From a bacterium (GTDB lineage: Bacteria > Patescibacteriota > Gracilibacteria > Peribacterales > Peribacteraceae), in the NCBI GenBank assembly GCA_027623015.1, contig JAQBVR010000010.1, positions 1-38,555 of the forward strand: a stretch of DNA of 38,555 nucleotides. Direction: 5' to 3'. The position numbers and the translations under genes were made by a program. Position 1 is the stretch's first letter; each line of letters begins with the position of its first letter. The notes below the pieces were generated by a model, which saw only the letters and a list, made by a program, of their open reading frames with translations, did no database searches and was not told the origin of the DNA. Positions 4,161-36,111 of the stretch are shown here, in pieces.

Positions 4161-4181
4161 CTGTGATAGGATATTTCTCCT

Positions 4182-4788: not shown

Positions 4789-4790
4789 AT

Positions 4791-5561: not shown

Positions 5562-5602
5562 CACAAAAGCTTCTAATGAAGCACCAATAGTATGGCTATA
5601 AC

Positions 5603-5631: not shown

Positions 5632-5640
5632 GCCTGTCAA

Positions 5641-7869: not shown

Positions 7870-8322
7870 ATGAAACACAACACACCAAAAACATTCGCAT
7901 CATTCCTTCTTGTAGCAATTGTATTTGCACTTGCAGACATGCCCGTTGCAGAAGCTACTCTATCTCCACGTCGTACCGATGGACTACGTAATGCTGCGAC
8001 AACACCGAAGCAAATCGAGCTACAAGCTGACCTCGCCGAACGCACTCGTCGACTAGCAGATCAATATAGTACACGCACGGGTGGTAGTGACTTCGATGCA
8101 CCTGACGTAAATAGTGACACTCCTGATCCAGTCATGCGAACTCGCCGTGAAAGTCTCACTGCAGTGGTAACACAGTCTGAGCCCACTTGGGAACTTGCAG
8201 AGGTGGCTGAGTCTCATACGATTGCTAAAAACATGCCTGCGTTGCCAAGTTCTGGATTTGGCATCTCTATGACTGCTATCGCTCTTGCAGCAACCGCAGT
8301 TATACGAACATTGAAGAGCTAA
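7870..8322 (+). CDS. Small secreted protein with LPxSG-like C-terminal anchor
   Basis: A 150-residue protein. Residues 1-29 form a signal peptide (MKHNTPKTF, then the hydrophobic ASFLLVAIVFALADM, cleavage probably after VAEA). The mature part is polar, with basic and acidic patches (SPRRTDGLR; DLAERTRRLADQYSTR) and no domain that I recognise. The C-terminus has ALPSSG, a hydrophobic helix and a short tail ending RTLKS, like a sortase sorting signal with Ser in place of Thr. I infer a wall-anchored or membrane-anchored surface protein. It lies just upstream of the giant SLH gene in the same direction, but the giant gene has its own candidate promoter. Confidence 0.75.
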   Translation: MKHNTPKTFASFLLVAIVFALADMPVAEATLSPRRTDGLRNAATTPKQIELQADLAERTRRLADQYSTRTGGSDFDAPDVNSDTPDPVMRTRRESLTAVVTQSEPTWELAEVAESHTIAKNMPALPSSGFGISMTAIALAATAVIRTLKS

Positions 8323-8459
8323 GAACTTCGTATCTCAACTTGAATCTATGTCTGACATTTGAGTAATGTTGACTTTTGTTTACTTTGTGTCCGTACCTAT
8401 AGAAGTACTTGCTTTAAACTGAGACTATGTCGCTGTGCATAGAGCAAAAGCGTGTTTTG

Positions 8460-8468
8460 TGGTAAAAT
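8460..8468 (+). promoter_or_regulatory. Candidate extended -10 of the giant gene
   Basis: TGG TAAAAT at 8460-8468; no clear -35. Transcription would start near 8475. That gives a roughly 90-nt leader if translation starts at ATG 8565, or almost none if a non-AUG codon near 8475-8484 is used. Confidence 0.4.
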
Positions 8469-8532
8469 TATAAGATTTCATACATACAAACACTATTCAA
8501 CGTTCTGGAGGCCCCAGAAGATATCTCTCTAT

Positions 8533-8564: not shown

Positions 8565-11500
8565 ATGTTAGTGAGTTTTCTGCTAAACGGTATCATCACA
8601 ACACCGGTTCTTGCACAAGCTATCGAAGATGCGAGTCCGGTTGAGTTAACTGTTAGCTCATCGTCTACTTCGTCAGAAATATCTGAATCATCTTCTTCGA
8701 AAAAAGAGATAGAGGAAATAAAAGAAATAGAGGATTCATCATCTGCATCTTCCGAATCTGAATTGTCAGACTCATCCGAAGAAATAGTTGAAGAAGTAGT
8801 TGAGGTTGAATCTTCAACCTCGAGTACCTTGAGCACGTCGTCCACTTCGAGTACCTCTAGTGCAGAAGTAATATTAGATCTTGAACTTCCAGATACATCA
8901 TCCAGTTCTTCATCTTCAACCTCGAGCACGTCGTCTACCTCGAGCACTTTAGAGAAAGAGATACAAGCATCGCTTATAAGCACACCAAAGCGATCGGTAC
9001 CAACCAATACACATCCTACATTTTCTGTACCGAAGGATGCAGAGATACAAAATATAGATGAACTTACACAGAGACTCATCGTTACACTTACAGATGCAGA
9101 CGGAGAGCTGACAAGCCCTGAGCTTGATATTGAAGCTACACAGGGTGCATACACCGTTACAGTGTTACCAAGTAATGACTTTGCACCAGGGCTCTACAGC
9201 ATCTCTGCTGTCATCGACGGTACCCGTGGTGCCAATCGACAACTTCAAAAACTCTTCCGAGAAACCGAAGGTGATGTAGAGGACATTATTGTTCTAGATG
9301 ACACTGTTCAGTGGGGAATGATCGCATTAAATACTGACCGTGCTGTGTACAATGTTGGTGATACTGCAGAGGTCACATTCACCGTGTTGAGTGATTATGG
9401 CAATGCACTCTGCGATGCAGACGTTGTTCTCACGATTACAGACTCAGATGGCAACGTAACTGAGCCAACTGTACTGCATCCATCTACATGCGAAGCGACT
9501 GCAGAAGGTATGCCAGTCTTTACGGCATCTATAACATTTGAAACATCTGGAGATCATAATCTGATAGTAACAGCTGAAACAGAAGAAGGTCAGCGCACAC
9601 TGAAGCAAGCAGTGTCTGTGTCAGACGAGCAGTCACTCATCGATGTACAGCGCAGCAATGCAGTCATTGCACTTGCAGGATCTGAGCAAACCATGACAGT
9701 CACTATTACTCCATCGCATACATTTGTTGGAGAAGTAACAGAGACTTTTCCATACGCAGTAGAGATTCTTGCATCTGATCCACCTGCAGATCTTAGTTTA
9801 GATAGCGATGGCAGCAAGCGCCTGACATGGAATAAGCAGTGGGATGCAGATAGGACATATACATTGACCTACACGTACAAGAGTCCTGTAGACGAGAAAG
9901 CATTTAGACTCTTTGGGCCTATTCATGCTGAGGGTACAGTGATGGGAACTACCGCTATTGAGGTGGACGACGTACTCGACGTTTTTTCATCTAATTCAAG
10001 TGAATCAGACAGCTCTTCATCATCCAAAGAAGTAATAGAGGATTCTTCTTCCTCTGAGGATGTTGTCGAAGTGGACGAGGTTCTCGACGTGCTCGACGTT
10101 TCTTCGTCTAGTTCAGAAGATACCTCTGAGTCGTCTTCCTCAGAAAAAGAAATAGAAAATTCTACTTCAAGCACGTCGTCCACCTCAGAATCTTCCGAGA
10201 TTGAGGAAGTCAGTGAGCCAGAGTCAGAAGAGGCTATCGAAGAAGTCATTGAGCCAGAAGAAGTCTCCAGTATCTGGAAACGCATCTTCAGCTTCATCGT
10301 CCAAGATGCTATCGCATTATCAGTAGATCGAGATCTACGGTTTACAGAACTACGACAGTGGCAGACCGTATTCGCAGTATCTGTTGTAGGGGAGGTAAGT
10401 AGCGATACAGGATTTACATTCTTGTCCGATGAATCCGAATTCCCTGAGCAGAAAACTGAAAATACATTGGTTCTAGAGAGCGAAGGAGATCAAGAGCTCT
10501 TTGCCCTAGGAAGTGAGCCAGAGTTTGTCATCCTTCAGCCTCTTATCAAAAAATCAGATGTAAAAGACAAGGAAGATACTTCTGTCACTGAACAGAAAGT
10601 CTTTGCTGATATTCTCGATACAGTCATCGATACTGAGTCTGTAGAGTATGCGATCGCAGAGACTATTATTGCAGATCAGAACACACAAGAGCGTATTGCA
10701 GGTGCTGTCATGAAAGATTCACTGCATGTTACTAAGCTTAGTGATGTTGCCTTGCCATCTGGTAGACGTATGCGGGCTTCGACAGTGAATTCTATAACGG
10801 ACAACATCATCCAAACTCTCGATGATTCAGAGAGCGTACAAGATGCTGTAGCGCAGGAAGTGCAAGATGTTGTTGCGACTGTTATCGAAGAACATGTCGT
10901 CGAAAAGGTAAAGCAAAAGCTTATCGCAGAAGCAATAGATGGTGACTTGCAGAAAAAAGACATCGAAGATGTTGTAGAGAGTATTGTTGCATCTGATCAG
11001 AGAGGTATAGTCGCAGATGTTACAGCGGAAGATGTGAGCATTCAAGATGTGGTTGTAGATGCAGTTGTACAAAATATGCAAAAAGGAACCGACTCACAAG
11101 AGGTTTCTACGAAAGAAGTCTTCCAGATGCATGTAACAAATGTTGCAGGAGATGCAGTCGCTATCGAACATCACTTCGAACAGAAGTCAGATGGATCTAC
11201 TGTCTTAAAACTAGGAAACAAAAAAGGTCTCAAGCCTGGTAGATACACAGTGCACACACAGATCACCAATCCACTTACAGGAGAGGAACAGATATTTGAA
11301 CAAGACTTTACATGGGGTGTCCTTGCACTCAACGCTGCAAAGGACGTTTACACTCCTGGTGAAGTGGTAAAGCTTGCTCTTGGTGTACTAGATGACGAAG
11401 GTGCCATGGTCTGCGATGCTATTCTTCATCTAACAGTGCTATCTCCAGATGGGACAGAGACTATCCTTTCAACTACAGAAGGATCTATCTCAGTTTCAGA

Positions 11501-14500
11501 AACATGCTCTGTCATGAAGTCAGATCTTATTACGCCCGACTACTCAACCATGTTCCGTGTCGATGAAGCAGGGGTATACAAAGTAGAAGCTGTCGCACAG
11601 ACACCAAATGGAGAACGGTCTCTAAAGTCACAGATTGTTGTTAAAGAAAATCCTGTATTCGTTGTTAAGAGAGAAGCTGCAACGCGTTTGTATCCTGTTG
11701 GATATTCACCGATGACGATCACCGTCACATTTAACCAAGACTTTACCGGTTCAATTGCCGAAAAACTTCCATCAGACTTCTATCCAACAGATATATCTGC
11801 AGATGGATTGCTGAGCAATGAGGAGAAAAATATTACATGGGAAGGAAGTTGGTCTGCTGGAGAAACAGCAGAATTCTTCTACCGATACAATGCTCCAGAC
11901 ATCTCTCCAGAGTTCTACACATTGGGACCCATCATACTTTCAAGCAGTATTGACAACTTTACACATAGAGAGTCTCGTGTATGGCTCATCGCAAACGATG
12001 CAACTGTTACTTCAATATTTAGACCAAACGCAGATGGAGCAAATGTAAGTCATACAGACTCATTTTCCTCTTGTAATACGCTTGGAAACTACGAGTGCGT
12101 CGATGAGGTAGTTGCTGATGACACAACTTCACAAATTCAGGCTACAGACGCATGCTCAGCAAGCATTGAGACTTTTGCAACAACATTTGCACTAACAGAT
12201 GGCAGTCTAACCAACGGTGCCATCGCATCTGTAACGGTCTATACAAGAGTGGCCGTAGACACGACAACTGATCAAACCTTTACGACCGAAATTCGAACTG
12301 TCTCTACCAATTATCTTGGGTCTACAGAAACACTTTCTGCAAATAGTACATTTCAGACGATCTCAAAAACCTATACGACAAATCCAAATACAGGTATCGC
12401 ATGGACTTGGGCACAGATCAACGCGATAGAAGCAGGTGCAGAGGCAACGCATGATGCAGACTCTTGTGGTGGATTATCTTACATTACACAGACATACATA
12501 GAAGTCTCTTACACAGCAACAAGTCCGTGGACAATTCGACCAAATGGAAATGGAACGATTGCATATACGGATGTAAATAGCACAACGTGTAATGCGACGA
12601 ATGGTAACTATGATTGTGTAGACGAAACGAGCGCAGATGATGCAACGAGCAATGTTGGATTTCAAGATTCTTGTTCTATATCTGAAGAATCTGCAGAAGA
12701 CCTCTACACAGTAACTGGTAGTGGAGGGATAACAAACGACATAGATTCCGTCACTGTCTATGTCCGTAGTCAGTCAAATAATGGAGCAAACGCTACTGTC
12801 GCAACAAAGCTACGAACAAATTCTACAAACTACTATGGTACAGAAGTTGGTAATGGTACTTATGTAACAGATTCGACTGTGTATACGACAAATCCAAATA
12901 CAGGACTCACTTGGACATGGGCAGAGATCGATGCATTGCAAGTAGGAGCACGTTCCACTCACGGAGGAGGTGCATGTAGTGCTAAAACAGATGTCACACA
13001 GGTATATGTGGAAGTTGCTTTTGCTGCTACACCGAGAGTAACAGGTACGCTCTATAGCGACGAAGGAGTTACGCCTGTTGCTGGGAAGACTATTGCGTAC
13101 TCTACCAATGGTAGTGGAGCTATAGACACTGCCATCACTGATGCAGGTGGTCAATTTAGACTGTCTGGAGCCACATTGACAGGCGGAACCATCATCACCC
13201 TATGGCAAGACGATGGCACAGGAACTGGTGTAGTAGTCACCCAAGCTACAACTGGAACAAATACTGGTATCCATCTATACCAAAACCGTTTGATCATCCG
13301 AAATGAAAATGGATCTGGAGCGATCACAAATAATATTCTCAATAGTGCTGAAAATAACGGTGGTACGCCTGAGCCAGACATCGCAGCAGTATATACAGTG
13401 ACATCAGACAATCTGACGATGTCCGGAGGCATGGAGCTTCTGGTCTGGGCAAGAGATGTGTATACCCCTGGAGGCACAGTGACTGCAGACGACATCGATA
13501 TAAATGGTACGTTGACGATGGGGACCAATGCACTTACTGCATCTGGATCCTTCGATGCAACAGGAGGTAGCTTCTCCATCTCTGGAACGACAACATTTAA
13601 CTCTACTGCATCTACAAATACCATCACGATGAACGGAGGAACAATGTCCGGTGTAATCTTTGCTGGAGGACAGGGTGCTTGGACACTGCAAGATGCGACA
13701 GATATAAACGGTCTTTTGACCATCTCTGGAGGAACATTGAAACAAGGAAATGCGACATTAAACATCTCGAAAGACCTGCGCATCGCACTCGGTGCATCAT
13801 TTACCAAATCGACCAATAGCTCACTTCTCAAGCTTGATGGAGACTTGTGGTACGAAGATGAAGTTGGTCTAAATCTTGGATATGTGCAAATAGGAGCAAG
13901 TCCTGAAATCATAACACTCTCAGGCTCACTCCAAGCAGACAAACTAACGGTTGGAACAGGGGATACACTGACACTCTCTGGAAACAATCTATTTGTAGGA
14001 ACCGGTGGTTTGTATCTCTATGGAACGCTTGATGCCAGTGACGACAGAGGGAGCACTTCGCTCATCACAGTATCTGGAGCATGGGTAGCAGCAGGCTCTG
14101 GAAACCTTATTGGTGGTACATCAACAGTACTGTTTGATGGTACATCTGGATCACATCAATTTGCGTCTTCTGGCGCATTCCATAATCTGGTCTTCTCTGG
14201 AACTGGAGGTACATGGAGTGCATCTGGCGATGCTCTAGATGTAAATGGAAGCTTCAGTCTCTCTGCAGGTACATTTGTCGCTCCGACTACATTAAACCTT
14301 TCAGGTTCATTCCTAAACGGTGCTAGCGGTACCTTTACACACAACTCCGGTTCGGTGATCCTCGATGGTAATAGTCAGACCGTATCTGGCGCTACAGCAT
14401 TCCACATCTTTACAAAAAATGGCTCTGCGCCTGACATATTTACATTTGCAGCTACTGCACTCCAAACATTTAGCGGAACGCTTACGATAGCTGGTACATC

Positions 14501-17500
14501 CAATGACTCGCGCATAACTGTTGTATCTTCTCAAGCAGGACTAGCCGCAAAACTTTCGCTCGATGCAGCAACCTCAGAAAGTATCTCCTTTATAGACCTG
14601 AAAGATAACGATGCATCTGGTGGTCAGACACTCGACTGTACTGGATGTATAAATACTGGAAACAATACAGGTTGGTTCTTTGCAACAGATCCTGTTGTTG
14701 GAACATTGTATAGCGATAGGGGAGTCACGCCATTGCCAAGTAAGCTCGTATCGATCAGCTACAACGGTGGTTCGCTCACTTCTTCTTATACGACAGATGC
14801 AGGAGGACAATTTACACTCTCTGGTGTCGCGATGACAGGAGGTACGATCATTACACTGTTCGTAGATAACGAGACGCAGGATGCAGTCACAGTGACACTT
14901 GGTTCTGGAGGATCCATGACAGGAATCCACATGTACCAAGACTTCTTCATCATTCGTAGTGACTCAGGCTCTGTAGCGCAGACAAACAACATCCTCACGA
15001 GTGCAGCAAACCTTGGCGGTACAGGAGACAGCGATCTTAGCAATATCTTCACACTTTCAAGCAACAATCTTACAGTACCCTCTGGAAAGAACCTCCTTAT
15101 ATGGGATAACGATACCTACAACCCTAGTGGCACAGTCACTGCGACAACACTCAGTGTCAGCACAGGTTCATCTCTTACTGCATCTGGCTTTGCAGTAGAT
15201 ATAAACGGCGATATGAGCGTATATGGAACGTATGACCAAGCACATGGAACACTTACAGTATCTGGATCTTTGCGGATCAAATCTGCAGGAGCATTTACGC
15301 ATGCTACAAATGCATCTCTCATCACTTTCGATGGAGAGTCTACGTTTGAAGATGAGGGTAATAACGGACTTGGTACGGTGATTATTGGTGCAAGTGACAA
15401 CACAACACTCACAGTATCTGGTGCACTGCAGGCATATATGCTCACCGTTGGAACGGGGGATACACTCGTCACAAATGGATACAATATCTCCGTTGGCACA
15501 GGTGGTTTGCACAATCATGGTTACTTCATTGCGTCAGACAATAGTCCGCATATATCTACCATTACCGTCTCTGGTTCATGGTTACACTCTGGAACAGGAG
15601 GATTTACTCCCGGGTCATCTACAGTCCTCTTCGACGGTACCTCAGGAATACATGAGATCACAGCATCTGGCTCGTTCTACCGATTAGTCTTCTCTGGCAC
15701 AGGGGCAACGTGGACTGCAACAGGTTCATTCCTCGATATCAATGGTGGACTAACGATCTCTGCAGGAACTCTCATTGCATCTGACGTCATCACACTTTCT
15801 GGTTCGTTCCTCAATGGAGCAAGTGGCACATTTACACACCATTCAGGTTCCGTGATACTCAACGGTCTCGACCAGACAATCTCTGGTTCTACAGTCTTCT
15901 TTAGGCTCACCAAGACTGGGTCAACAGCACAGACTCTCACATTCCCAGCAACTGCACAGCAGTCTATCAGTGGCTCTATAGTTCTCACGGGAACTAGTGC
16001 ATCAAATAGACTCAGCCTACGATCGAGTACATCTGGCATCGCGGCCAAACTCTACGTAGATGTCGGTGCAACGAAAGAATTTTCATATCTCGATGTACAG
16101 GATATCGATACCTCTCCAGGTGTCGTGCTCACCTGTACAACAGAATGTGTAAATAGCGGAAACAATACAGGATGGAATTTCAATACTATCGTTGGTTCTG
16201 CATATAGTGACGAAGGGGTTACACCTCTTTCAGCTGTAACTGTAGCCATGTCTCTAAATGGAGGTGTTGCGACAGATACAGCGATAACAGACTTGGGAGG
16301 ACAGTTTACACTCTCTGGTGCAACATCTTTGACTGGTGGAACGATCATCACTCTGTACTTAGATTCTGGAAGCTCTTCGGGTGTGACTATCGCACTAGGT
16401 TCTGGTTCGAGTATGTCGGGCATGCACATCTTTAAAGACAGGCTTATCGTCCGTAGTGTTGCAGGCTCAACTGCTATTACAAACCTCGACATCGACCACG
16501 CAAATGACAACGGCGATGCATCTATCACCGCAATACTTACAAGCGCTAGTACTAGCGCTATAGTAGTAGCTGGAGGGAAGGAGCTACTCGTCTGGACAGG
16601 TTCAACATTTGCACCAGCAGGTACAGTGACTGTTGACGATATCGACATAGATGGAACACTGACCATGCTGACCAATGCACTTACAGCTTCAGGCTCCTTC
16701 GATGCTACTGGTGGTAACTACAGCATCTCAGGTACGACAACATTCAACTCTACAGCATCTACAAATACCATCACGATGAATGGAGGGACTATGTCTGGTG
16801 TTATCTTTGCTGGAGCAAACGGGTCTTGGACACTACAAGATGCAACCGACTTCAATGGTACGGTAACCATCTCTGGTGGAACGCTCGTACAAGGAAACAC
16901 AACCCTCTCTATCGCAGGCGATCTACGTGTCACAGCAGGTGCTGCCTTCACGAAGTCGAGTAACAGCTCAATGTTGACGCTTGACGGAGACTTGATCCTT
17001 GAAGATGAGCAAACAGTAAACTTCGGTAATCTGGCTATATCTGGGGCTCCAGATAACACGGTAACGCTTTCTGGGGCACTACAAGCAGACAGTCTAACTA
17101 TCGGAACAGGAGACACACTCACACTCTCTGGGTTCAACCTCCTCATCGGAACAGGTGGACTGCATCTTCATGGAAGCTTGAATGCAGGTGATAATGGAAC
17201 TGCAGTGTCACTCATTACTGTCTCTGGTTCATGGCTTGCATCTGGAACAGGGGACTTCATCGGCGGAACATCTACTGTTCTCTTCGATGGCACTACAGGC
17301 TCACATGAGATCACATCATCTGGAGCATTTCACAACCTCGTATTCTCTGGAACAGGAGGAACGTGGACAGCGAGTGGCGATGCGATGAACGTTAACGGTA
17401 GCTTTAGTTTGAGCGCTGGTACATTGACGGCACCTGCAACATTGAACCTCTCAGGGTCCTTCCTCAATGGCGCCAGTGGTACATTTACGCACAATTCAGG

Positions 17501-20500
17501 TTCGGTGATCCTTGATGGTAATAGTCAGACTATCTCTGGTGCGACAGTATTTTATAACTTGTCTAAGGTAGGATCTAGCCCAGATATACTTACATTTGCA
17601 GCTACTACTGAGCAGTCTGTAAGTGGAGCACTTTCATTGCGAGGCACGAGTGCATCAAGCATATTAGTAATCAAATCTAGTATTGCAGGTATTGCAGGAC
17701 TACTCAGCCTCGATACTCTCGCTGGTACTTCAAACAATGCATTCCTCGATATCATCGATAACGATGGAAGTAATGGCCTGCAAATCTCTTGTACGGACTG
17801 TACCGATAGTGGTAACAATACAAACTGGGACTTTGCACTCGCTTCTATCGTCGGTACGCTCTATAGCGACGAAGGAATCACCCCTCTGGCGAGTAAAAAA
17901 GTTGCAATCAGCTTTAATGGTGGAGCAATACTCGATGATGATGAGACAGATGCCGGAGGTCTATTTACCCTATCAGGTGCCTCTCTAACAGGGGGAACTA
18001 TCCTCACTATTTATATCCAAGACGAGGTACAGGATGGTGTACTTGTCGCTTTAGCAACAGGATCAAGTATGACTGGTATGCACTTGTACCAAGACTTCCT
18101 TATAGTAAGGAGTGAATCGGGAGCTGTTGCTGTTACAAATACAATACTGTCACTGGCAGATGACTTTGCTGGAACACCAGATACAGATGTATCTAATATC
18201 TACACAATTTCTGCTGGAAACCTTACTGTGCCCACAGGAAAGAACCTTCTTGTATGGGGCAACGACACATTTGAACCAGGTGGAAGTATAAACGTTCCAT
18301 CCTTCTCTATAGGGACAGGCTCTGTCTTTACCACAAATGGATCTGCCGTAGATATCAATGGAACATTCACGGTCTACGGTACATTTAACCAAGGTAATAG
18401 TGCTCTTAGTGTGTCAGGAAATTTGCTCATCTCTTCTGGTTCGACATTTACGAAGTCGAGCAATAGTTCACGGTTTATCCTCGATGGTGACCTCACGTTT
18501 AACGATGAGACATCTACAAATCTAGGTCATGTGCAGATCGGAGCAAGTCCAGATACCACAACGCTACTCTCAGATCTTACAGTCGATACTCTTACTGTGG
18601 GCACAGGGGATGTCCTTATATTATCTGGTCATAATCTGTTTATCGGAACTGGTGGACTACATCTTCATGGTCTTATGGATGCAACAGACGACAGAGGAAG
18701 TGTGTCGCTCATTACCGTATCTGGTTCTTGGCTAGCGTCTGGGACGGGAGACTTTATCGCAGGCAAGTCTACAGTGCTCTTCGATGGTAGTTCTGGATCA
18801 CACAACATTACCGCTTCTGGAGCATTCTACAACGTTGTATTCTCTGGAACAGGAGGCACGTGGAGTGCATCTGGATCGTATCTAAATATAGATGGAAACT
18901 TCACACTTTCTGCAGGTACGTTTACAGCTCCAGACATCATCAATCTTTCTGGTTCATTCCTTAATGGAGCAAGCGGAATGTTCAATCACAACTCTGGTTC
19001 TATGATCCTTGATGGACCAGACCAAACACTATCTGGTTCTACAGTGTTCTACAACTTGAGTAAGTCTGGTTCGACTGCACATACTCTTACATTTGCAGCC
19101 ACGGCTGAGCAGACTGTAAGTGGCGCACTTCTTCTACATGGTGGAAGTTCGACTGCACGCTTAAGCTTGCGTTCAAGTATCGCAGCCATCCTCTCACTCC
19201 TCACACTAGATGCCGCAGGAACACAGTCTATTTCCTATGTTGATGTAAAGGATAATAGCGCATCTGGAGGCCAAATACTGACATGTGGAAACCTCTGTGC
19301 AAACAGTGGAAATAGCGCAAACTGGCTTCTCGATACTGTTACAGGTACTGCATATAGTGATGAAGGAGCAACGCCGATTGCATCCACACAAATCGCAATA
19401 AGCTACAACGGTGGTGCAGTAACAGATACACACACGACAGATGCTGGTGGACTCTTCACTCTCTCTGGAGCAAATATGACGGGTGGTACAGTCATTACAG
19501 TATATCTCAATGGTGGCACTGCTACAGGAGTAACTATTCTTCTTGGATCAGGATCATCTATGACAGGCATCTCCGTATTTGAAAATCGTCTTATCATTCG
19601 CAGTGAATCTGGCTCTGTACTGTTTACAAATACCACACTCGCAGTCGCAGATGACAATGCAGATACGGACATCACGACAGTGCTTTCGAGTGCTTCAACT
19701 ACAGCTGCAACGGTATCAGCTCCATATGAATTACTCGTGTGGGCAGGTACGACTTTCATACCAGGAGGCACACTAACAACAGACGACATAGATATAAACG
19801 GTACACTCACACTTGGTACCAATGCACTTACTGCTTCAGGATCCTTCGACGCAACTGCTGGAACATACAGTATCTCTGGGACGACAATATTTAACTCCAC
19901 TGCATCGAACAACCTTATCACGATGAATGGAGGGACTATGTCTGGTATAATCTTTGCAGGAGCAAATGGAGCATGGACGCTACAAGATGCAACAGACTTC
20001 AACGGAACAGTGACGATCTCTGGTGGAACACTGATTCAAGGAAATACAACACTTAATATTGCAGAAGATCTTCGCGTTGCTGCTGGAGCAGCATTTACGA
20101 AGTCATCAAACAGCTCACTGCTTACACTCGATGGAGACTTGATCCTCGAAGACGAGCAGTCCGTCAACTTCGGAAATCTTTTGATCTCTAGCATTCTAGA
20201 GAACACAGTTACGCTATCTGGATCTCTTCAGGCGGACACTCTCACGATCGGAACAGGAGACACACTGACACTCTCTGGATTCAACCTCTTCATCGGAACG
20301 GGTGGATTGCATCTTCATGGAAACTTGAATGCTGCAAACAATGGATCTGCAATATCACTCATTACAGTATCTGGCTCATGGCTAGCATCTGGAACAGGAG
20401 ACTTTATCTCGGGAGATTCCACAGTCCTCTTTGATGGAACATCGGGTAGCCATGAGATCACAGCATCTGGTGCATTCCATAACCTTGTCTTCTCTGGAAC

Positions 20501-23500
20501 AGGAGGTAGTTGGACTGCGTCTGGTACGTATATGAACATCGATGGTAGCTTCACGCTCTCTGCAGGTACGTTTACTGCTTCAGATATCATCACTCTATCT
20601 GGATCATTTGTACATGGAGCAAATGCAACATATACACATAACTCCGGTTCATTTATCCTCGACGGTACGAATCAGACGATATCAGGATCTACAGTTTTCT
20701 ATGGTTTGACCAAGACAGGATCTCTCGCACATACATTGACCTTTGGTGCTACGACGCAGCAGTCTATTAGTGGATCGCTCACACTACGCGGAGCTACAAG
20801 TCAGTTGCTGTCTATCCGATCAAGCATTACATCCATCCAACCTAAGTTAGTAATAGACTCTAGTGCTACACAAGATATCGCATACTTAGATGTACAAGAT
20901 AACAATGCAAATGGAGGTTTGTCACCGAATTGTACAAGTTGTACAAATAGCAGTAACAACACCAACTGGTTCTTCGAAACGCATACGATTGTTGGTACTG
21001 TCTACAGTGATGAAGCGGTCACTGCTATAGCATCTACAGAAATCGCAATGTCTCTTAACGGAGGAGCTGCAACAGACACAGACATCACAGATGCAGGTGG
21101 GCAGTTCATTCTCTCAGGCGCTACAACAACAGGGGGTACGCTTATCACTTTGTATCTCAACTCTGGTACAGCATCTGGTGTCATGATAGTACTAGGATCT
21201 GGCTCATCTATGACGGGTATTTCCATCTTTGCAAACCGACTCATCATTCGCAGTGAAACAGGGGCATCGGTGACAAATGCCGACCTTGCAAATGCAGATA
21301 ACAACGGCGATAACGCTATCTCTGCAATTCTTTCTAACGCTAGTACTAGCGCTATTACAGTCGCAGCAGGGAAAGAGCTGCTCGTATGGACTGGTAGTGT
21401 CTTCGCACCTGGAGGCACTATAACCACAGACGATATCGACATCAATGGAACGCTCACTCTTGGTACCAACGCCCTCACGGCTTCAGGATCATTTGACTCA
21501 ACTGGAGGGAACTTCTCTATGTCTGGAACGACGACGTTCAACTCCACGACATCGACCAATACCATCACGACAAATGGAAGTACATTCTCAGGAGTAGTCT
21601 TCTCTGGAGCAAATGGAAGTTGGACTCTTATAGATGCGCTAGACATCAACGGAACAGTAACCATCTCTGGTGGTACACTTGTCCAAGGTAATTCCACGTT
21701 GAATATCGGAGGAGATCTTCGTATTGCTGCCGGGGCAACGCTAACAAAATCCAGCAATAGCTCATTGCTTACACTAGATGGCAACGTAATTCTTGAAGAC
21801 GAAGTCAGCTTAAACTTCGGTAATTTGGCTATATCTGGGGCTCCAGATAATACGGTAACGCTTTCTGGATCACTACAAGTAGACATGCTTACTATTGGTA
21901 CAGGAGACACACTCACACTCTCTGGGTTCAACCTCTTCATCGGAACGGGTGGGCTGCATCTGCATGGAAGCTTAAACGCAGGAGACAATGGAACTGCAGT
22001 GTCACTCATCACTGTCTCTGGTTCATGGCTCGCATCTGGAACAGGGGACTTCATCGGCGGAACGTCTACAGTAATCTTCGATGGAACATCTGGAAGTCAT
22101 GAGATTACATCTTCAGGCGCATTTAACAATCTTGTATTCTCTGGAACAGGAGGAACATGGAGTGCATCTGGAGATGCGATGGACGTAAACGGAAGTTTCT
22201 CACTCTCAGCGGGTACATTTACTGCACCGACTACGTTGAACCTCTCTGGAGCATTCCTCAATGGTGCCAGTGGTACATTCTTGCACAATTCAGGTACTGT
22301 AATACTCGATGGTGGTAACCAGACCATCTCTGGTTCTACAGCATTCTACAGCTTCACCAAGACCGTCTCAGCAGCGTATACATTGACTCTTCCAGCCACT
22401 GCTGAACAGACATTTAGCGGAACACTTACTATACAAGGGGGCGGATCTACCGATCGCCTTACGCTTGCTTCAAGCAATAGCGCAGTGGATTATTTGATGA
22501 CACTAGATGCAGCTGGAAGCGAAACGATCTCACAGCTTATTGTTGCACGTAGTGATGCAAGTAATGGTCAAGAGTTATCGTGTACAAACTGTATCGATAA
22601 TAGTAACAATACAAACTGGAACTTTATAACGCCTGCTGTCGTTGGTACGGTATACACTGATGAAGGAGTGACACCGCTTGCAAGTACGGTAGTAAGTTTT
22701 AGTGCAAATGGTGGTGCGCGGCTTGCATCGTACACAACAGATGCAGGAGGTCAGTTCACTGTTTCTGGTTCATTGATGTCCGGTGGTACAGTTATTTCAT
22801 TGTATCTTAATGGAGGAACTGCAACAGGAATGACGATTGTACTTGGATCTGGCTCAGCGATGACGGGTATAAGCATCTTTGCCAATCGTCTGATAGTTCG
22901 TAGTGAGTCTGGCACTTCAGCTATCACCAATGCCACACTCGCTATTGCGGATAACCTTGGTGATAGCGATATGACCGCTATTCTTTCGAGCGCTACTACT
23001 AGCGCTATAACAGTGGAAACAGGGTACGAGCTTCTCGTATGGACAGGGACAACATTTACTCCTGGTGGCACCATTACGACTCACGATATGGACATAAATG
23101 GAGTCCTCAACTTCCAGCGAAATGCCATCACGGTAAAGGGGTCATGGGAGATGACGAGTGGTACGCTCTCTGGCCACACAGCTATCACATTTGCACCGAA
23201 GATAACGACAGCAACTATCACGTCTGGTGGTAGGACATTCTCTGGAGTGACACTCAACAGCACAGGAACAGTGACGCTTGCAGATGCGATGAACATCGAT
23301 GGGTCACTCAAGGTACTCTCAGGAACCTTTGTACAAGGTCTCTATGCTCTAAATGTATCCGACGATGTTCGTATTGCTTCTGGTGCAGTATTTACGAAGT
23401 CGAGCAATAGTTCTGTCTTCACGTTTGATGGCGACCTTATATTCGAAGACGAAGTTGGTGAAAATCTTGGTGTTGTACAGATAGGTAGCAGTCCAGAAAC

Positions 23501-26500
23501 TATTACTCTATCTGGCTCACTCCATGCAGATAAGCTTACTATTGGTACAGGAGATACGTTGGTACTTTCAGGTCACAATCTCTTCGTTGGAACAGGTGGG
23601 TTGTACATTCACGGACTACTCGACGCAACAGATGCAGGTTCTACTGCTTCGGTCATCACCGTATCTGGTTCATGGCTTGCATCGGGAACAGGAGACTTCA
23701 TTTCAGGTCGTTCTACAGTGCTCTTCGACGGAAGTTCAGGGTCACACAATATCACCGCCTCAGGTGCCTTTTACAACGTAGCATTCTCTGGTACTGGAGG
23801 AACGTGGACAGCCTCTGGGCAAGCTCTAGACATCAACGGAAGCTTTACGCTTTCTGCAGGCACATTCACTGCACCGACAACACTCAACATTAGTGGATCC
23901 TTCCTCCGTGGAAACAGTGGTACTTTCCTGCACAATAGTGGGTCTGTATTCTTAGATGGAGGAGACCAGACAGTGTCTGGTTCTACAGTCTTCTACAATT
24001 TCGAGAAGCAATCTTCAGCAGGAGTAACACTGGAATTTGCAGTCGGAACACAGCAAAGTTTCAGTGGATCTTTGACTCTGCAGGGATTGCTCAAAGCAAT
24101 GATCATTAGCTCTACAAGCAGTACTATCACCGGTGCGCTCAATATGGGAAGTGGAACCGTAGTGATGGATCTTCTTAATATAGAGGATATAGATGCAGAC
24201 CCAGGTGCTACACTTATATGTAACAACTGTGTAAATGCAGGAAACAACAGCAATATCACATTTGTTACAGCTGTAATTACTGGTACTGCTTATAGCGACG
24301 AAGGTGTAACGCCGATAGCAAATACTACCGTGAGTCTTAGTTACAACGGACAAAGTGCTGGAGATAGTGACCTAACAGATGCAGGAGGTATGTTTACCCT
24401 CTCTGGTGTGGTCATGACAGGGGGTACGGTATTAGCAGTATACCTCGACGGAGGCACATCTACGGGTCTCACTATAGTACTTGGATCTGGCTCTGCGATG
24501 ACAGGTGTACACATCTACGCAAATAGACTGATAGTACGCAGCCTGTCGGGCACGAGCGCTATTTCCAATGCAAACCTAGCAATTGCAGATAATAACGGCG
24601 ATACAGATATCACCTCCATTCTTACGAGTGCAACGGGAGGCAATATCACTGTCGCTGCACAAAATGAGCTTTTCATATGGACGGGTAGTGTGTTTACACC
24701 TGGCGGAACAATAACTACAGATGACATCGACATCGACGGTACACTCACGCTCGATAACAATGCACTTACTGCAAGTGGATCTTTTGATGGACAGGGTGGA
24801 AACTTCTCTAGTTCTGGAACCATAACACTCCACTCGTATAATATAAACAACACGATCTATAGCAATGGTAGTACATTCTCAGGACTGACATTGGCAGGAG
24901 GAAGTGGATCATGGATACTCCGTGACGCACTCAATGTAGATGGTGTCTTCCATTTCTCTGGTGGTACGTTGACCCAAAGTGGTCTTACGATGAACCTATC
25001 AGAAAATATAACCATAGATGCAGGAGTAACATTTACAAGGTCACTGCAGCAAGCACGGGTCACACTAGATGGCTCACTCTTGTACCAAGACTCTGCAGAT
25101 ATTTCGTTGGGTTATGTGACAATTGGCGGAAGCAATAGTGCCACAGTCACTCTCACAAGTGATCTTCGAGCAGATCTTCTCGTAATTGGTACCGGAGATA
25201 CCTTGGTGCTGTCTGGAAACAATCTAAATATAGGAACGGGTGGCCTCTTTATCCACGGTACATTAGATGCATCTGATAACAACAGCTATGACAATTCTAT
25301 TATTACGTTGAGTGGCTCGTGGGCAGCGTCTGGTACGGGAGACTTCATAGCTGGAACATCGACGGTAGTACTCGAAGCAGGTGCTGCAAGCTCTGGTATA
25401 AGTGTAAACAATATTACCGCTTCTGGAGCGTTCTACAACCTAGTAATATCGGCTACAGGAGCGGTGTACTCGGCATCTGGTTCGTTCTTAGATATCGATG
25501 GAAACTTAACGATCTCTGCAGGTGCACTAACAGGATCGGACATCATTACTCTTGCTGGAAACTGGATGGTTGGAAGCGGTTCGACATTCGACCATAACTC
25601 AGGGTCTGTGATCCTCGATGGTATTTACCAGACCATCACAGGCTCCACGCTGTTCTATAACTTGGCGATGACAGGAGCATCGGCTGCACGTCTAACATTT
25701 GCAGCGCATACACAGCAGACTATTAGCGGCTCTCTTACACTACATGGGCCGAACTCTAGCAATCCACTTGAGATTCGATCTAGTAGCACAGGAAGCTTTG
25801 CAAGGCTCTATGTCGGATCGGAAGCAACATACTCCGTACAAAATCTTGACGTACAAGATAGCGATGCCAGCTTTGGACAATTGCTCTATTGTGAAACGGG
25901 ATGCCAAAATAGTGGCAACAACCGTAACTGGGCATTTGCGACAGTCGTTGGTACGCTCTATAGCGATGAGGGTGTTACGCCACTAGCCAGTAAAACAATA
26001 GCGATTTCCAGCAATGGTGGATCGGTATTCGATACTGCAGAAACAGATGCAGGAGGTCAGTTCACACTCTCTGGAGCGGCGATGACAGGAGGAACGATAT
26101 TGACCCTTTTTGTACAAGATGAAACAGAAGATGCTCTATTGGTTGTTATATCTGATGGCGGATCGATGACAGGTATAGATCTGTACCAAGATCGGCTGAT
26201 TGTTCGCAGTGAATCAGGCTCATCCACAATCACAAATAGTGATCTTATTATTGCAGATAACAACGGTGGAACGTTTGATGCAGATATAGCAAATATCCTA
26301 TCGAGTGCTACGACAGCAACTGGAATCACCGTTCCAGAAGCCAAAGAGTTGCTCATATGGACAGGAAGCGTATTTACACCATCTGGTACATTCTCTGTTC
26401 ATGATATCCAGATAGATGGTCGACTCAATATGTCTAGTGGAACTGGAACAATCTCAGGTAGTTGGGATGGATCAAATGGTATATTCAGCCCAGGAAGTGG

Positions 26501-29500
26501 AACAATAGTTTTCATTGCAAAGTCGAGTGAATCCATCGATACAAATGGTCAGTTGCTCAATAATATTCATTTCACAACGACAGGATCATGGACTCCTACA
26601 AGTGATTTAGGTATTGCAGGAAATATACGGATTCTTTCTGGAACACTTGTTGCTCCAAGAACGATTACCTTGAGTGGTAGTTGGACACTTGGCAGTGGTG
26701 CAGTATTCACCTTCGGTACTGGTACTGTACGACTAGATGGTAATCGACAAACTATCTCTGGTTCGACGACGTTCTACAATCTTGTCAAAACAGCTGATGG
26801 ATTTGAGTATGTAACCTTCAGTTCCGATCGTCTCTTTACGATCTCTGGTTCACTAAGCATGTCTGGTCAGAGCTTGACGGAGCTTATCATGATACGTTCG
26901 ACTATTGATGGCACTCCGCATAGGCTCAGTGTCAACACAGCAGGCCGAGATGATATGCTCTATATAGATGTAAAAGACTCAAACGCATCTGAAGGACAAG
27001 CTATAAACTGTCCTATTGGTTGTACAGATAGCGACAATAACACTAATTGGTTGATCAGTAGCACAGTCAGTAGTGGCGGTGGCGGTGGCGGTGGCGGTAG
27101 TACGGGTGCAGGCGGCGGAGGTGGCGGTGGAGGTGGAGGTGGAGGCCCAACTGTAGAGATTACAGCTGTAAAACATGCCTGTCTTACATTTGGTCGCTCA
27201 TTGTCCTCTCCGTATCAAGATATAGAGGGTCATCCAGCTGAACATGCGATACGTCAGTTGCAAAAAGCACGTATTGGAAATGCAAATATCGCATTGCTCC
27301 GTGGAAGGTTGCAGCAGGAAAAAGGGAATCACCGTCGTTTGTACTTGCCAGATGAAGCGATAACACGTGCAGAGATGGTAGAGCTCGTACTCCTTGCAAA
27401 CTGTGTGCCGCTCATTCACGATCCACAAGATCTTAGCTTTGCATTTATCGATGTTTCAAGTAGCACAAGGAAGGGTGGAGAAGACGAGGTATTCAAAAGA
27501 AAGCTTATCTACACCGCTGTGGATCTTGGTCTTATCGATGGGTATTCAGATCACAACTTTAGGCCAGATGAGCCTATAAAAAAGGCAGATGCTATGCGTC
27601 TTCTCGTTCTTGGCTCAGAGCTACCTCCCCTCAGTACATCACCAGTACAAACCTTCTCAGATGTGCCAGTCAAAGCATGGTACGCACCATTTGTAGAGCG
27701 TGTCATAGCAGATGGACTTGTAGGAATCTTTGGCAGGCTGTTCCAACCACTAGGTACATTTAGCAGAGGAGATGCTGCATTTGCTATCCATCAGCTCATT
27801 CAAAATAGTGGTGAGAAGGGGCTAAATACTCTCGAGATAGATGGAAAGATCCTTACAGAGGTAGCTGCTACACCACAGGAGCTCCAAGATGCGTTTGATG
27901 ATCCACAAGAGTGTCTACTGTTTGGCGCACCGCCTACACCAGAGTTCTCCGATATAGCAGACCACTGGGGTAGTGCACCTATCCAGCGCCTCGCTAGGAT
28001 GCGTATCGCAAATGGACAACGCCCACTGACGTCAGGTTATCTCGTAGAGAAGGGAGGGCGTATGGTTCGTCAATTTAGTCCGAACAAAGACATCACAAGA
28101 TTTGAGATCCTCAAGCTTGCACTACTTAGCAACTGTATTCCACTTATTTCAGAGATTGAAAGTGCAAATACAACATTTACAGATGTTCCAAAGAAAGGAA
28201 GGCTAAACGAAGACCCTGAAGACTGGCAAAAACGCTCTATCATCTACACTGCAGCGAACTTAGGACTCATCCGAGGGTATGATGATGGTAGTTTCAGAGC
28301 AGATCAACCTGTGACGCGTGCTGAGGCTCTCAAGATCATCACACTTGCAGCAAACCTACCAACACTCGATAACGATGATGTACAAGTCTTTAATGATGTA
28401 CCGGTCTACGCATGGTATGCATCGTACGTAAACCAAGCAGTTGGATTTGGTCTCGTCACAGGGTACGGCGATAGTACATTCCGTCCCGGAAACAATGTGA
28501 CACGAGCTGAGGTAGCCAAGATCATCAATACGATACTTACATCGACAGAAAAAATGACGACTGCCATAGCACAGCAGGCTCTACGCAGAGCTGCAGAAGA
28601 TTTGATAGATCCTCTCACATATGCCGATGTTCCTGCAGAAGCGCCTCCATCGTATCTTGAGTACTTAGAGAATATACCGAAGCCTATAGACACTAAAACA
28701 GACCTCATAACCAATGAAGACATTGTCCAAGAGCTACAGCGTAACCAACGTGCTGTAGTACGTCAGGTTGAAAAGAGGGCAGAGCGTCTCGATATCATTG
28801 ATGCACGTGAAGCAGAAGCAGAAGCCGAGCGTCTCGCGATAAAAACAGAAGAGAGTATCGAAGACTATATTCCAGAAGAAGTACTCCAAGTAGATATCGA
28901 AGAGTGTCACATCGCAGGAGAGCCACTTGAGCCTAGATTTAGTGACACAGAAACACACTGGGTACGTAGCATCGTCGATACATTATCTCGTACACATACT
29001 GCAGTAAGTGAAACACCGATCCTTCAAGGTCATGTGCAAGGGGGTAAGAGGCTATTCTACCCAGAGTTGCCAATGACTCGGTACGAATTCCTAGCAACAG
29101 TACTTAAATCTCGTTGCTACTCAACCTTGTCAGATCTTCGACATGTCAGAGCAAACTTTAGCGATGTACCAAAGGACACATCACTAAAGAGTAGAGTCAT
29201 CTACACCGCTGCACACCTGAAGATAGCTGGTGGCAATGGCGATGCAAGCTTCCGTCCAGATGAGCCTATCTCTCGAGTAGAAGCACTGGCGATACTCCTA
29301 CGTGCATCAGATATCGCACCGATCCATCCATCACTTATCAAGACAACCAATGCATTTGAAGACGTACCATCCTATCAGTGGTACTACCCATATGTGTATA
29401 CCGCTGTTTATGAGGGCATCGTCGGTGGATACAGAGATGGTACATTCCGTCCTGCAAAACATCTTACACGCGCAGAGGGTGCGAAGCTTGTTCACTCTCT

Positions 29501-31162: not shown

Positions 31163-32872
31163 ATGATTTCGTGCTTCGGTAAGTTTACCTTGTTCAGCCT
31201 GCACTGCAGATACATGGTAATGCGCAGGGATCAAGTAGGGGTCAGCTTCGAGCGCTAAGAGAAACTCTTGTTCTGCTTCTTCTATCCTCAGACGTTTTTG
31301 GTAGCCGATGCCGAGGTTTAAGTGCGGCTCTGCATACTGCGATCCTCGCTCTGCAGCTTCTTCATATAGTGCTACTGCTTCCTCATCTTCATCCATCACT
31401 TCTTTCAGTCCAGCAAGGAAATAATACGGAGCGTACATACCAGCTTGCGGCTGTTTGATGGTGTCGATCGACGTGATTGCTTTCTCGTAATAGGTGATAG
31501 CCATATCGATTTCTCCTCGTTGCTGATAGATCAAACCTATGTTCGACAGTGCACGAAAGTCTGGGTCTATCGCTGCGGAACGTTCGAAGAGTTCCAGTGC
31601 TTCGTCTGGTTTACCCTTTGCATTGAGTGCAGCTCCGAGATTATTGAGTGAGAGTGCAGACTCTGGAAATTGTCGAACAACATTGCGATACAGCGCTTCG
31701 CTGTCTTGCCATGTTCGAGCGTAGATGTGGCTATTTGTAGCGAAGCAGAGGAGTAAGAACAAAACTGCAGCAGCCATACCATGCATCTTCTTCTCTGTAG
31801 TACACAGTGCATGGAGCCCAAGGCCAACGAGAAGTATCACTGCGATAGAAGGCAGATAGCTGTAGCGATTGTCTGCAAAAAAGATGAACCCACCCTTCGT
31901 AAAGTTCACGATATTTGGTGCAAGAAGTAGTCCATAAAAACTTCCTGCAAGAAACACATACTTTGCTTTGTTGTAGGACCAGAAAAAGAGTCCGATACCG
32001 ACAACCACAAGCACGATAGGAATGAAGAAACTAGGGTCGATAACTTCGATAGAATCATGCTGTGGGTAAATCGCAGAAAGCCCTGTAGGAAGGGCGATAC
32101 TCTTTATTGAAAATACGATACTCTTGCACGCCATCATCAGCGTTTCCAGAGGAGTAAGCAGGAGTGCATTCTTCGTTCGACCGATGATAGCGATGGCCAA
32201 AAAGAGAATGCTCAAGATGCCAAATGGAATCTTTTCTTTTAGTGTGTCTTTTGTTATTTTTCTTTTTCCAAAATCATCAAGCACAACATAAAAAACAGGG
32301 AGCAGAACAATGACAACTTTCGAAAGCAGTCCAACGGCAAATGTCGTGATGCTCGCAGTCAGCCATTTTCGATTTTCTGTCTTTGGTGATGCGCTGTAGC
32401 GAAGATAGCAGTTGAGCGAGAGTAGACCAAACAGTGCAGAGAGGACATCTTTCCGTGCAGATGCCCATGCGACGACATCGACATGTAGAGGGTGTAATGC
32501 AAAGACAAAACCGCAGAAGATAGCCAACCATGGCTTTTTACTCAGTTGCTGAACTGCCAAGAGCACAAGCAGTGCATTGCAGATATGTAGCAACAGATTT
32601 GTTGTGTGAAACAGCATCGCACTTCCACCAACAAAAGCGTACTCAATTTGGTATGTCAGCAGTGTCAGTGGGATGTACAGTTCAGGATCGTACGATGTAA
32701 ATATTCTGAGGATGTTATAGGCAGAGATGTGTTTCACGAGGGGATTTCCTGTGATGAGCATCCCGTCATCGAGAGAGACAAATCCATTGCCGAGTGATAG
32801 TGCATACACAGAAAGTGTTACGACAGCGATGATGCCAGACCATAACCGAAGATGTGCTTTGGGGAAATCCAT
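31082..32872 (-). CDS. TMTC-like GT-C glycosyltransferase with TPR repeats
   Basis: 596 residues from ATG 32872; the frame is open to GTG 32896. The N-terminal ~390 residues hold about ten membrane helices. The first long loop has FVSLDDGMLITGNPLV, with the DD pair of GT-C enzymes, and HPLHVDVVAWASARKDVLSALF is the hallmark of the TMTC/DUF1736 family. The C-terminal ~200 residues are about five TPRs (SLNNLGAALNAKGKPDEALELFE; EPHLNLGIGYQKRLRIEEAE). Eukaryotic TMTCs are O-mannosyltransferases using lipid-linked sugar. By analogy this one may glycosylate Ser/Thr of exported proteins, and the convergent giant protein is an obvious candidate (inference). The start choice rests on the TACACT box ending 7 nt before ATG 32872; GTG 32896 would lie upstream of that box. 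Confidence 0.82.
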   Translation of the reverse strand: MDFPKAHLRLWSGIIAVVTLSVYALSLGNGFVSLDDGMLITGNPLVKHISAYNILRIFTSYDPELYIPLTLLTYQIEYAFVGGSAMLFHTTNLLLHICNALLVLLAVQQLSKKPWLAIFCGFVFALHPLHVDVVAWASARKDVLSALFGLLSLNCYLRYSASPKTENRKWLTASITTFAVGLLSKVVIVLLPVFYVVLDDFGKRKITKDTLKEKIPFGILSILFLAIAIIGRTKNALLLTPLETLMMACKSIVFSIKSIALPTGLSAIYPQHDSIEVIDPSFFIPIVLVVVGIGLFFWSYNKAKYVFLAGSFYGLLLAPNIVNFTKGGFIFFADNRYSYLPSIAVILLVGLGLHALCTTEKKMHGMAAAVLFLLLCFATNSHIYARTWQDSEALYRNVVRQFPESALSLNNLGAALNAKGKPDEALELFERSAAIDPDFRALSNIGLIYQQRGEIDMAITYYEKAITSIDTIKQPQAGMYAPYYFLAGLKEVMDEDEEAVALYEEAAERGSQYAEPHLNLGIGYQKRLRIEEAEQEFLLALEADPYLIPAHYHVSAVQAEQGKLTEARNHLQSVVWMAPDYEQASKHLGNIERLID

Positions 32873-32879
32873 TGGGATT

Positions 32880-32888
32880 AGTGTAGCA
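32880..32888 (-). promoter_or_regulatory. Extended -10 of the glycosyltransferase gene
   Basis: On the minus strand TGC TACACT ends 7 nt before the ATG; leaderless mRNA expected. The upstream promoter DNA is the left arm of the palindrome at 32898-33100. Confidence 0.6.
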
Positions 32889-32897
32889 GAGAGCACA

Positions 32898-33481: not shown

Positions 33482-36111
<2,630 letters not shown>

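What the first reader, a model, noticed from the sequence alone, without database searches (positions are those of the whole stretch)
8565..30353. A 7262-residue surface protein with a full outward-to-wall architecture
Seen: one uninterrupted 21.8-kb frame with signal peptide, duplicated Ig-like units, nine beta-helix-like modules, poly-Gly hinge and four SLH triads. Known: SLH domains bind wall polymer. Inference: a very long S-layer fibre or attachment protein, perhaps for host or particle contact in an episymbiotic cell. The module motif YSDEGVTP through NSGNNTNW does not match a family I can name.
Basis: partly seen in the sequence, partly recalled or inferred. Interest (0 to 1): 0.72.

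Follow-up and report, generated by a model that had tools for sequence, protein, structure and literature searches.

The report
Giant wall-anchored beta-helix surface protein
A tiny uncultured bacterium (Peribacteria/Peregrinibacteria group) carries one gene, 2% of its genome, for a 7,262-residue rod-like surface protein that is clipped to the cell wall at one end and carries immunoglobulin-like domains at the other; it is real, kept in at least three related species, and is an unnamed example of a known kind of giant surface protein.

Summary
ORF 8565-30353 (+) is one open frame of 7,262 codons, about 753 kDa. Its parts are a secretion signal, Ser/Glu-rich spacers, a duplicated MG2/Ig-like unit, a Cys-bearing duplicated domain, nine tandem modules, a Gly-rich hinge and four SLH triads. 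It is not a repeat artefact: modules are 40-72% identical in protein and 50-71% in DNA, and three related MAGs carry orthologues (7,806 codons intact; one split over two contigs; one contig-truncated) beside the same downstream genes (TPR gene, ligA). The module has no Pfam, NCBIfam or PDB sequence match. AlphaFold (pLDDT 93.6) gives a small Ig/transthyretin-like cap on a right-handed beta-helix (Z 12-15 to VacA p55, AlgG and phage tailspikes). Seven SLH grooves satisfy the published wall-polymer binding rule, and the genome has a CsaB-like pyruvyl transferase. In a 287-genome phylum sample SLH occurs in 26/26 genomes of this class and 4/261 others. Best reading: a long wall-tethered beta-solenoid stalk displaying an N-terminal tip for contact with cells or surfaces. 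Anchoring is well supported by sequence; adhesion and host contact are inferred. Giant surface proteins and SLH proteins are already reported in related CPR bacteria, so this is a new member of a known kind, with a new module family.

The parts
8565..30353 (+). Giant surface protein gene, 7262 aa, about 753 kDa, pI 4.2
8565..8618 (+). Signal peptide h-region (MLVSFLLNGIITTPVLA|QA); the true start may lie up to 33 codons upstream (from 8466)
   Evidence: cleavage site inferred by eye
8619..8984 (+). Ser/Thr/Glu-rich spacer
   Evidence: composition
9042..10004 (+). First Ig/MG2-like unit (Pfam MG2 at aa 256-304)
10005..10289 (+). Second Ser/Glu-rich spacer
10290..11204 (+). Charged linker region, low similarity to orthologues, fold not tested
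11205..12059 (+). Second Ig/MG2-like unit: MG2-like sandwich followed by an integrin-calf-like sandwich
   Evidence: model m610da3fab5d6
12060..13040 (+). Cys-bearing domain in two copies; no relative in 59 related genomes; orthologues have a beta-helix mini-module in its place
13041..14696 (+). Module 1 (552 aa)
14697..16190 (+). Module 2 (498 aa, short form)
16191..17849 (+). Module 3 (553 aa), structure predicted
17850..19340 (+). Module 4 (497 aa, short form)
19341..20990 (+). Module 5 (550 aa)
20991..22640 (+). Module 6 (550 aa)
22641..24278 (+). Module 7 (546 aa)
24279..25946 (+). Module 8 (556 aa)
25947..27089 (+). Module 9 (381 aa, truncated, next to the hinge)
27073..27164 (+). Poly-Gly hinge
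27213..27866 (+). SLH triad 1 (groove 2 predicted functional)
   Evidence: rule from PMC6081394
27945..28559 (+). SLH triad 2 (grooves 2 and 3 predicted functional)
28938..29525 (+). SLH triad 3 (grooves 2 and 3 predicted functional)
29760..30350 (+). SLH triad 4 (grooves 2 and 3 predicted functional)
7870..8322 (+). Small secreted protein (150 aa) with C-terminal SGFG - hydrophobic - basic tail; also found upstream of the giant gene in two other species; possible partner
31082..32896 (-). Membrane plus TPR protein (604 aa); syntenic in all three other species
33482..35692 (-). NAD-dependent DNA ligase LigA; syntenic marker

Best explanation
The gene encodes a giant, secreted, wall-anchored rod. 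The signal sequence sends it out by Sec. [quoted passage not shown] The Gly-rich hinge leads into nine tandem modules, each a small Ig/transthyretin-like cap followed by a right-handed beta-helix, which stack into a stiff stalk, by inference on the order of 100 nm long. The stalk carries the N-terminal end, with two MG2/integrin-calf-like units, a lineage-specific Cys-bearing domain and Ser/Glu-rich spacers, away from the cell, where it binds another cell, a surface or a polymer. Shown here by sequence or model: architecture, fold of a module and of the second Ig unit, conservation, and wall-binding residues. Inferred: export, polymer type, stalk length, and adhesive function. Not tested: the partner bound.
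For: Open frame and architecture. Orthologues with the same order of parts: G060 (7806 codons, Peregrinibacteria CG10_49_10), G059 (N- and C-terminal parts on two contigs), G061 (C-terminal part), with downstream TPR gene and ligA synteny. Modules pair by position among those species with up to 100/100 support, so the array is old and maintained; third codon positions are the least conserved (33-51% identity). Module model pLDDT 93.6, pTM 0.88; right-handed beta-helix neighbours VacA p55 Z 14.9 (rmsd 3.4, 234 aligned), TibA 12.6, HK620 tailspike 12.4, Ag43 10.4. Second Ig unit (model residues 11-265) mostly pLDDT 90 or more, MG2-like and integrin-calf-like, Foldseek E 2.5e-7. SLH residues meet the SpaA rule in 7 of 12 grooves. 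CsaB-like gene in the genome; across the phylum sample 27 of 30 SLH genomes have a CsaB-like protein against 17 of 257 without SLH. No hydrophobic anchor apart from the signal; two further marginal windows lie inside modules.
Against: No expression or imaging data. The CsaB-like protein is below the NCBIfam equivalog cut-off (115.9 against 213.1 bits), so pyruvylation is not proven. SLH-CsaB co-occurrence is mostly one class, so the test is not independent of phylogeny. Foldseek gives no strong single match for the module (best E 0.37). The tip's binding partner is unknown, the Cys-bearing domain could not be modelled (mostly pLDDT under 50), and the start codon is unusual.
Confidence: 0.68

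Rival explanations
1. Structural coat: the protein is a main S-layer or sheath component whose rods pack side by side, protecting the cell rather than binding a partner.
For: Four SLH triads; SLH is universal in the class; very long repetitive rod.
Against: The genome has 17 further SLH-bearing frames on other contigs, of ordinary size (167-1452 codons), better suited to a lattice; giant single-copy rods with distinct tips are not typical of lattices (general knowledge). The tip has its own conserved and swapped domains.
Confidence: 0.2
2. Defence: the MG2-like units act like alpha-2-macroglobulin, trapping proteases, as proposed for two Vampirococcus membrane proteins (PMC8080830).
For: MG2 Pfam hit and fold match to bacterial alpha-2-macroglobulin and complement C5.
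Against: No thioester motif C-x-E-Q anywhere in the protein; only isolated MG-like sandwiches without the rest of the macroglobulin; such sandwiches are common stalk domains (general knowledge).
Confidence: 0.05
3. Enzyme: the beta-helices degrade polysaccharide, as pectate lyases, tailspikes and epimerases of the same fold do.
For: Fold neighbours include AlgG, alginate lyases and tailspikes.
Against: No match to any enzyme family in Pfam or NCBIfam; invariant module columns are mostly Gly and other small residues, with no acidic cluster among them in the helix part; Ser/Thr/Gly-rich like adhesins.
Confidence: 0.06
4. Artefact: repeats were expanded or joined by the assembler.
For: Draft genome, repetitive gene; an orthologue (G059) is split across two contigs within a module.
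Against: Module copies differ by 29-50% in DNA, far beyond assembler confusion; an independent MAG (G060) has one intact 7806-codon frame with nearly the same order.
Confidence: 0.02

Closest known systems
SLH-domain surface proteins (Paenibacillus alvei SpaA and SlhA, Bacillus anthracis Sap; PMC6081394)
   Same: SLH triads with the Gly29, Trp13 and Arg43 pattern; phmmer match to Sap SLH (6BT4, E 2.7e-9)
   Different: Four triads instead of one, first repeat of each degenerate; the rest of the protein is unrelated and far longer
Large extracellular proteins of Candidatus Peribacter riflensis (PMC4736985)
   Same: Same broad lineage; large secreted proteins proposed for attachment; S-layer genes reported
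   Different: Those described are Cys-rich (7.2%) and average 1655 aa; this one has 0.5% Cys and 7262 aa. Whether its family was among their set could not be checked (supplements not available)
Giant and SLH proteins of Absconditicoccaceae epibionts: Vampirococcus lugosii (PMC8080830) and S. methylophilicida (PMC13059738)
   Same: CPR bacteria with giant surface proteins and, in the second paper, 8-10 SLH proteins, proposed for host contact
   Different: In V. lugosii the ten longest are 1392-4163 aa; domains named there (WD40, DUF11, fibronectin, concanavalin A) differ from this module
Giant1-4 proteins of Apilactobacillus kunkeei (PMC12863079)
   Same: 3,000-8,000 aa surface proteins with a predicted beta-solenoid
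   Different: There the beta-solenoid is one N-terminal domain on an alpha-helical rod with an SH3b-like end; here nine beta-helices form the rod and SLH is the anchor
Giant ORFs of Omnitrophota (PMC10066038)
   Same: Very long ORFs in nanobacteria, proposed adhesins; relatives of the module also occur in Omnitrophota MAGs (L045, L065)
   Different: Those are described as poorly conserved, many with transmembrane helices, up to 39,678 aa; SLH is not named in the passages read
Right-handed beta-helix adhesins and tailspikes (VacA p55, Ag43, TibA, HK620 tailspike)
   Same: Fold of residues ~130-553 of the module (Z 10-15)
   Different: No sequence similarity; each helix here is short, capped by an Ig/TTR-like domain and repeated nine times in one chain

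Membership tests
SLH-anchored wall proteins (PF00395) | SLH repeats above the curated cut-off | tested here: met
   8 repeats over cut-off, E 7.1e-88 in all
SLH-anchored wall proteins (PF00395) | SLH trimer arrangement with the Gly29/Trp13/Arg43 groove pattern | tested here: met
   Four triads; groove 2 in all four, groove 3 in triads 2-4
SLH-anchored wall proteins (PF00395) | Pyruvylated wall polymer made by CsaB | tested here: inconclusive
   CsaB is the best NCBIfam match but 115.9 bits against a 213.1-bit cut-off
S-layer lattice protein | Forms a 2D array covering the cell | not testable with these tools
   Needs imaging or proteomics
Right-handed beta-helix fold | Parallel right-handed beta-helix | tested here: met
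   AlphaFold model pLDDT 93.6, Z 12-15 over 230-260 residues to known beta-helices
Two-partner-secretion or autotransporter adhesin (FHA, Ag43) | N-terminal TPS domain or C-terminal beta-barrel | tested here: not met
   No such Pfam or NCBIfam domain; C-terminus is SLH
Alpha-2-macroglobulin | Thioester motif C-x-E-Q | tested here: not met
   No C.EQ in the protein; MG2 domain alone is met
LPxTG sortase substrate | C-terminal LPxTG, hydrophobic stretch, basic tail | tested here: not met
   No LPx[TS]G and no hydrophobic stretch at the C-terminus
Cna-type isopeptide-bonded pilin/adhesin modules | Conserved Lys and Asp/Asn pair in the cap domain | tested here: inconclusive
   CnaB-type chains are among Foldseek's weak matches, but the cap has no near-invariant Lys (best column 18 of 35); 45 Lys in 4683 module residues

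The most novel reading that the evidence does not exclude
This orthologue group is a dedicated host- or prey-contact fibre of SLH-bearing CPR bacteria (Peribacteria and relatives): a beta-solenoid stalk of roughly 100 nm, held on pyruvylated wall polymer by several grooves, with an exchangeable tip domain that sets the partner, made together with the small conserved secreted protein encoded just upstream.
Probability: 0.2. Interest if true: 0.65.

Novelty: new member of a known kind. Interest (0 to 1): 0.4.

Why it matters
How wall-bearing CPR bacteria hold on to other cells is mostly unknown. This gene gives a concrete candidate with a defined anchor, stalk and tip, conserved in several species, and a new module family that recurs in other giant frames in CPR, Omnitrophota, Elusimicrobia and Gammaproteobacteria. 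The class-wide pairing of SLH with a CsaB-like enzyme suggests that this whole class, unlike most CPR, uses SLH-based wall anchoring, which can be tested with expressed domains.

Tried and rejected
Assembly artefact: rejected by divergence between modules and by independent orthologues. Sequence match of the module to solved structures: none. Pfam and NCBIfam for the module: only weak scattered hits, such as CarboxypepD_reg and G8 in one or two of 38 members. Phage origin: no tblastn match among 50,697 phage records; structural matches to viral proteins are weak apart from one uncultured phage protein at E 3e-4. Sortase anchoring of the giant itself: no signal. Thioester protease trap: no motif. 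The Cys-bearing domain (aa 1166-1492): no relative in 59 genomes, no PDB sequence match below E 0.6, model mostly below pLDDT 50, so its fold is open. A first NCBIfam call failed on a wrong frame and was repeated.

Full report
Observation. The frame 8565..30353 on the + strand is real, 7262 codons without a stop, about 753 kDa and pI 4.2, and makes up 2.0% of a 1.10-Mb, 99%-complete genome in 46 contigs. The closest relatives with names are MAGs of Peregrinibacteria/Peribacteria, so the bacterium belongs to that CPR lineage.

Anatomy. Going from the N-terminus: a hydrophobic signal; a Ser/Glu-rich spacer; a first MG2/Ig-like unit (Pfam MG2 at aa 256-304, E 3.6e-10); a second Ser/Glu-rich spacer and a charged linker; a second copy of the unit (aa 881-1165); a Cys-bearing domain in two copies (1166-1492); nine modules (1493-6175); a Gly-rich hinge; and four SLH triads (6217-7262). 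The modules are six of 546-556 aa, two short ones of 497-498 aa and a truncated last one of 381 aa. Protein identity between modules is 40-72%, DNA identity 50-71%, and third codon positions agree in only 33-51% of cases, so the copies are old, diverged and constrained at the protein level. That excludes a repeat expanded by the assembler.

Start codon. The ATG at 8565 gives a signal without basic residues ahead of the hydrophobic stretch. The frame is open for 33 more codons. There it reads ...YARARRACARLMLVSFLLNG, and the orthologue reads ...VLVRVRKCFARAMLISVFFSN, also without an upstream ATG, GTG or TTG; in G059 an ATG stands a few residues earlier (KKMLVRAVLAS). A sequence resembling an extended -10 box (TGGTAAAATTA / TGGTAAAATTA / TGGTATTATTA) lies upstream in all three. 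The true start is therefore open; the export inference does not depend on it.

Module fold. A model of module 3 with 38 aligned sequences has mean pLDDT 93.6 and pTM 0.88. Foldseek finds no strong single match (best E 0.37), but the second-look aligner places residues ~240-553 with right-handed beta-helices: VacA p55 Z 14.9 (rmsd 3.4, 234 aligned), AlgG 12.7, HK620 tailspike 12.4; TibA (Z 12.6) and antigen 43 (Z 10.4) cover residues ~140-445. The first ~90 residues form a small sandwich; the Foldseek list holds CnaB-type and transthyretin chains over short stretches, which is weak evidence. No Pfam, NCBIfam or PDB sequence family covers the module.

Tip fold. The second Ig unit (model residues 11-265) is mostly at pLDDT 90 or more. 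It consists of an MG2-like sandwich (complement C5 and bacterial alpha-2-macroglobulin; about 2.2 A over 95-97 residues, Z 10.6-11.5) and an integrin-calf-like sandwich (2.2 A over 114 residues, Z 11.8). It occurs in 29 of 287 genomes across the phylum, often in large frames, so it is a general CPR surface unit. The Cys-bearing domain has no relative in 59 related genomes and could not be modelled. In G060 and G059 the same place holds a diverged mini beta-helix module, so this slot of the tip is exchanged between lineages.

Orthologues. G060 (CG10_49_10) has one frame of 7806 codons with signal, both Ig units, modules in the order mini, full, short, full, short, five full, truncated, then Gly-rich hinge and SLH; the window has full, short, full, short, four full, truncated. 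G059 (CG11_49_14) holds the N-terminal part at one contig end and the C-terminal part at the start of another, which share the residues GVASTITLSGSWLAT. G061 (RIFOXYB1_FULL_54_35) holds the C-terminal 3850 codons. In all three the 604-aa TPR gene and ligA lie next to it; the small secreted gene is found upstream in the two that hold that side. In the module tree, modules of G060, G059 and G061 pair by position with up to 100/100 support, while the six full modules of the window form their own group (95/95). So the array was present in the common ancestor of those three species, and the window's lineage has expanded or homogenised its full-length modules on its own.

Wall anchoring. The four triads align with each other, and phmmer matches triad 4 to Bacillus anthracis Sap SLH (6BT4, E 2.7e-9). 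PMC6081394 states that a groove is predicted functional by Gly29 in SLH n, Trp13 in n+1 and Arg43 in n+2. Applied here, groove 2 is intact in all four triads and groove 3 in triads 2-4: seven grooves; groove 1 lacks a clear Trp in SLH2. The genome has one PF04230 protein whose best NCBIfam match is CsaB, at 115.9 bits against a cut-off of 213.1. In a phylum sample of 287 genomes, SLH occurs in all 26 of the window's class and in 4 of 261 others; CsaB-like proteins (E up to 1e-10) occur in 25 of 26 and in 19 of 261. So 27 of 30 genomes with SLH also have a CsaB-like protein, against 17 of 257 without SLH (tabulated, whose total of 288 counts the window's genome twice). Most of this is one clade, so it is a single contrast plus two outside cases (G335, G076), not 27 independent ones. 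Among 59 nearer relatives, 59 have SLH and 56 have PF04230.

Other uses of the module. Relatives of the module occur in further giant frames: 8175 codons in G012 (contig-cut, C-terminal hydrophobic tail), 10,041 in G039 (contig-cut) and 13,354 in G051, the last two with an N-terminal hydrophobic stretch and none with an SLH motif at the end held. It is also found in Omnitrophota, Elusimicrobia and Gammaproteobacteria MAGs. It is a building block shared by giant proteins with different anchors.

Mechanism. The parts fit a wall-tethered stalk with a contact tip. Shown: architecture, folds of one module and one tip unit, wall-binding residues, conservation. Inferred: Sec export, pyruvylated polymer, rod length of about 100 nm (from module count and the usual beta-helix rise; not measured), adhesion. 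Not tested: the partner. Rivals are a structural coat, a protease trap (no thioester), an enzyme (no family match) and an artefact (excluded above).

Known and new. Large extracellular proteins proposed for attachment and S-layer genes are reported for Peribacteria (PMC4736985); giant surface proteins for Vampirococcus (PMC8080830); SLH proteins and large surface proteins for Absconditicoccaceae (PMC13059738); giant ORFs for Omnitrophota (PMC10066038); giant beta-solenoid proteins for Apilactobacillus (PMC12863079). So the kind is known. New here are the capped beta-helix module family, the four-triad anchor with seven predicted grooves, the conserved gene neighbourhood and the class-wide SLH contrast. 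Most subscription papers were not searchable, so some of this may be in print.

Noticed in passing
window 37222 (+): A PilT-like ATPase reading frame (about 37090-38112) has an in-frame TAA at 37222, where the G059 homologue is intact; either a broken pilus-retraction gene or a sequence error.
   Followed up: partly
window 7870-8322: Small secreted protein with a C-terminal P-x-L-x-x-SGFG, hydrophobic stretch and basic tail, resembling a sortase signal; conserved upstream of the giant gene in two other species; the genome has three sortase-like matches.
   Followed up: partly
window 21-1493: Pro-rich protein with a Cys-rich acidic repeat (TIGR02232) and a C-terminal hydrophobic tail ending RRKKKR, like the Cys-rich proteins described for Peribacteria.
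   Followed up: no
phylum sample: SLH domains are in all 26 sampled genomes of this class but only 4 of 261 other CPR genomes, with a matching but weaker pattern for CsaB-like enzymes; G335 is a possible independent gain.
   Followed up: partly
L075-L077 (G051:C3:815645-855706), L073-L074 (G039:C18:3-30125), L071-L072 (G012:C4:47748-72272): Frames of 13,354, 10,041 and 8,175 codons holding relatives of the module but with hydrophobic anchors and no SLH seen at the end.
   Followed up: partly
window 8455-8500 and the matching stretches of L040 and L067-L068: Conserved promoter-like sequence followed by an A/C-rich leader before the giant gene in three species, with the frame open but no standard start codon for 33 codons in the window.
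   Followed up: partly
window 31082-32896 (-): Multi-spanning membrane protein with C-terminal TPR repeats; from memory the N-terminal part resembles TMTC-type mannosyltransferases, which would suit a Ser/Thr-rich neighbour, but no family match beyond TPR was found.
   Followed up: no
window 30674-31162: 23S_rRNA_IVP four-helix-bundle protein (PF05635) just after the giant gene; whether the orthologous loci have it was not tested.
   Followed up: no
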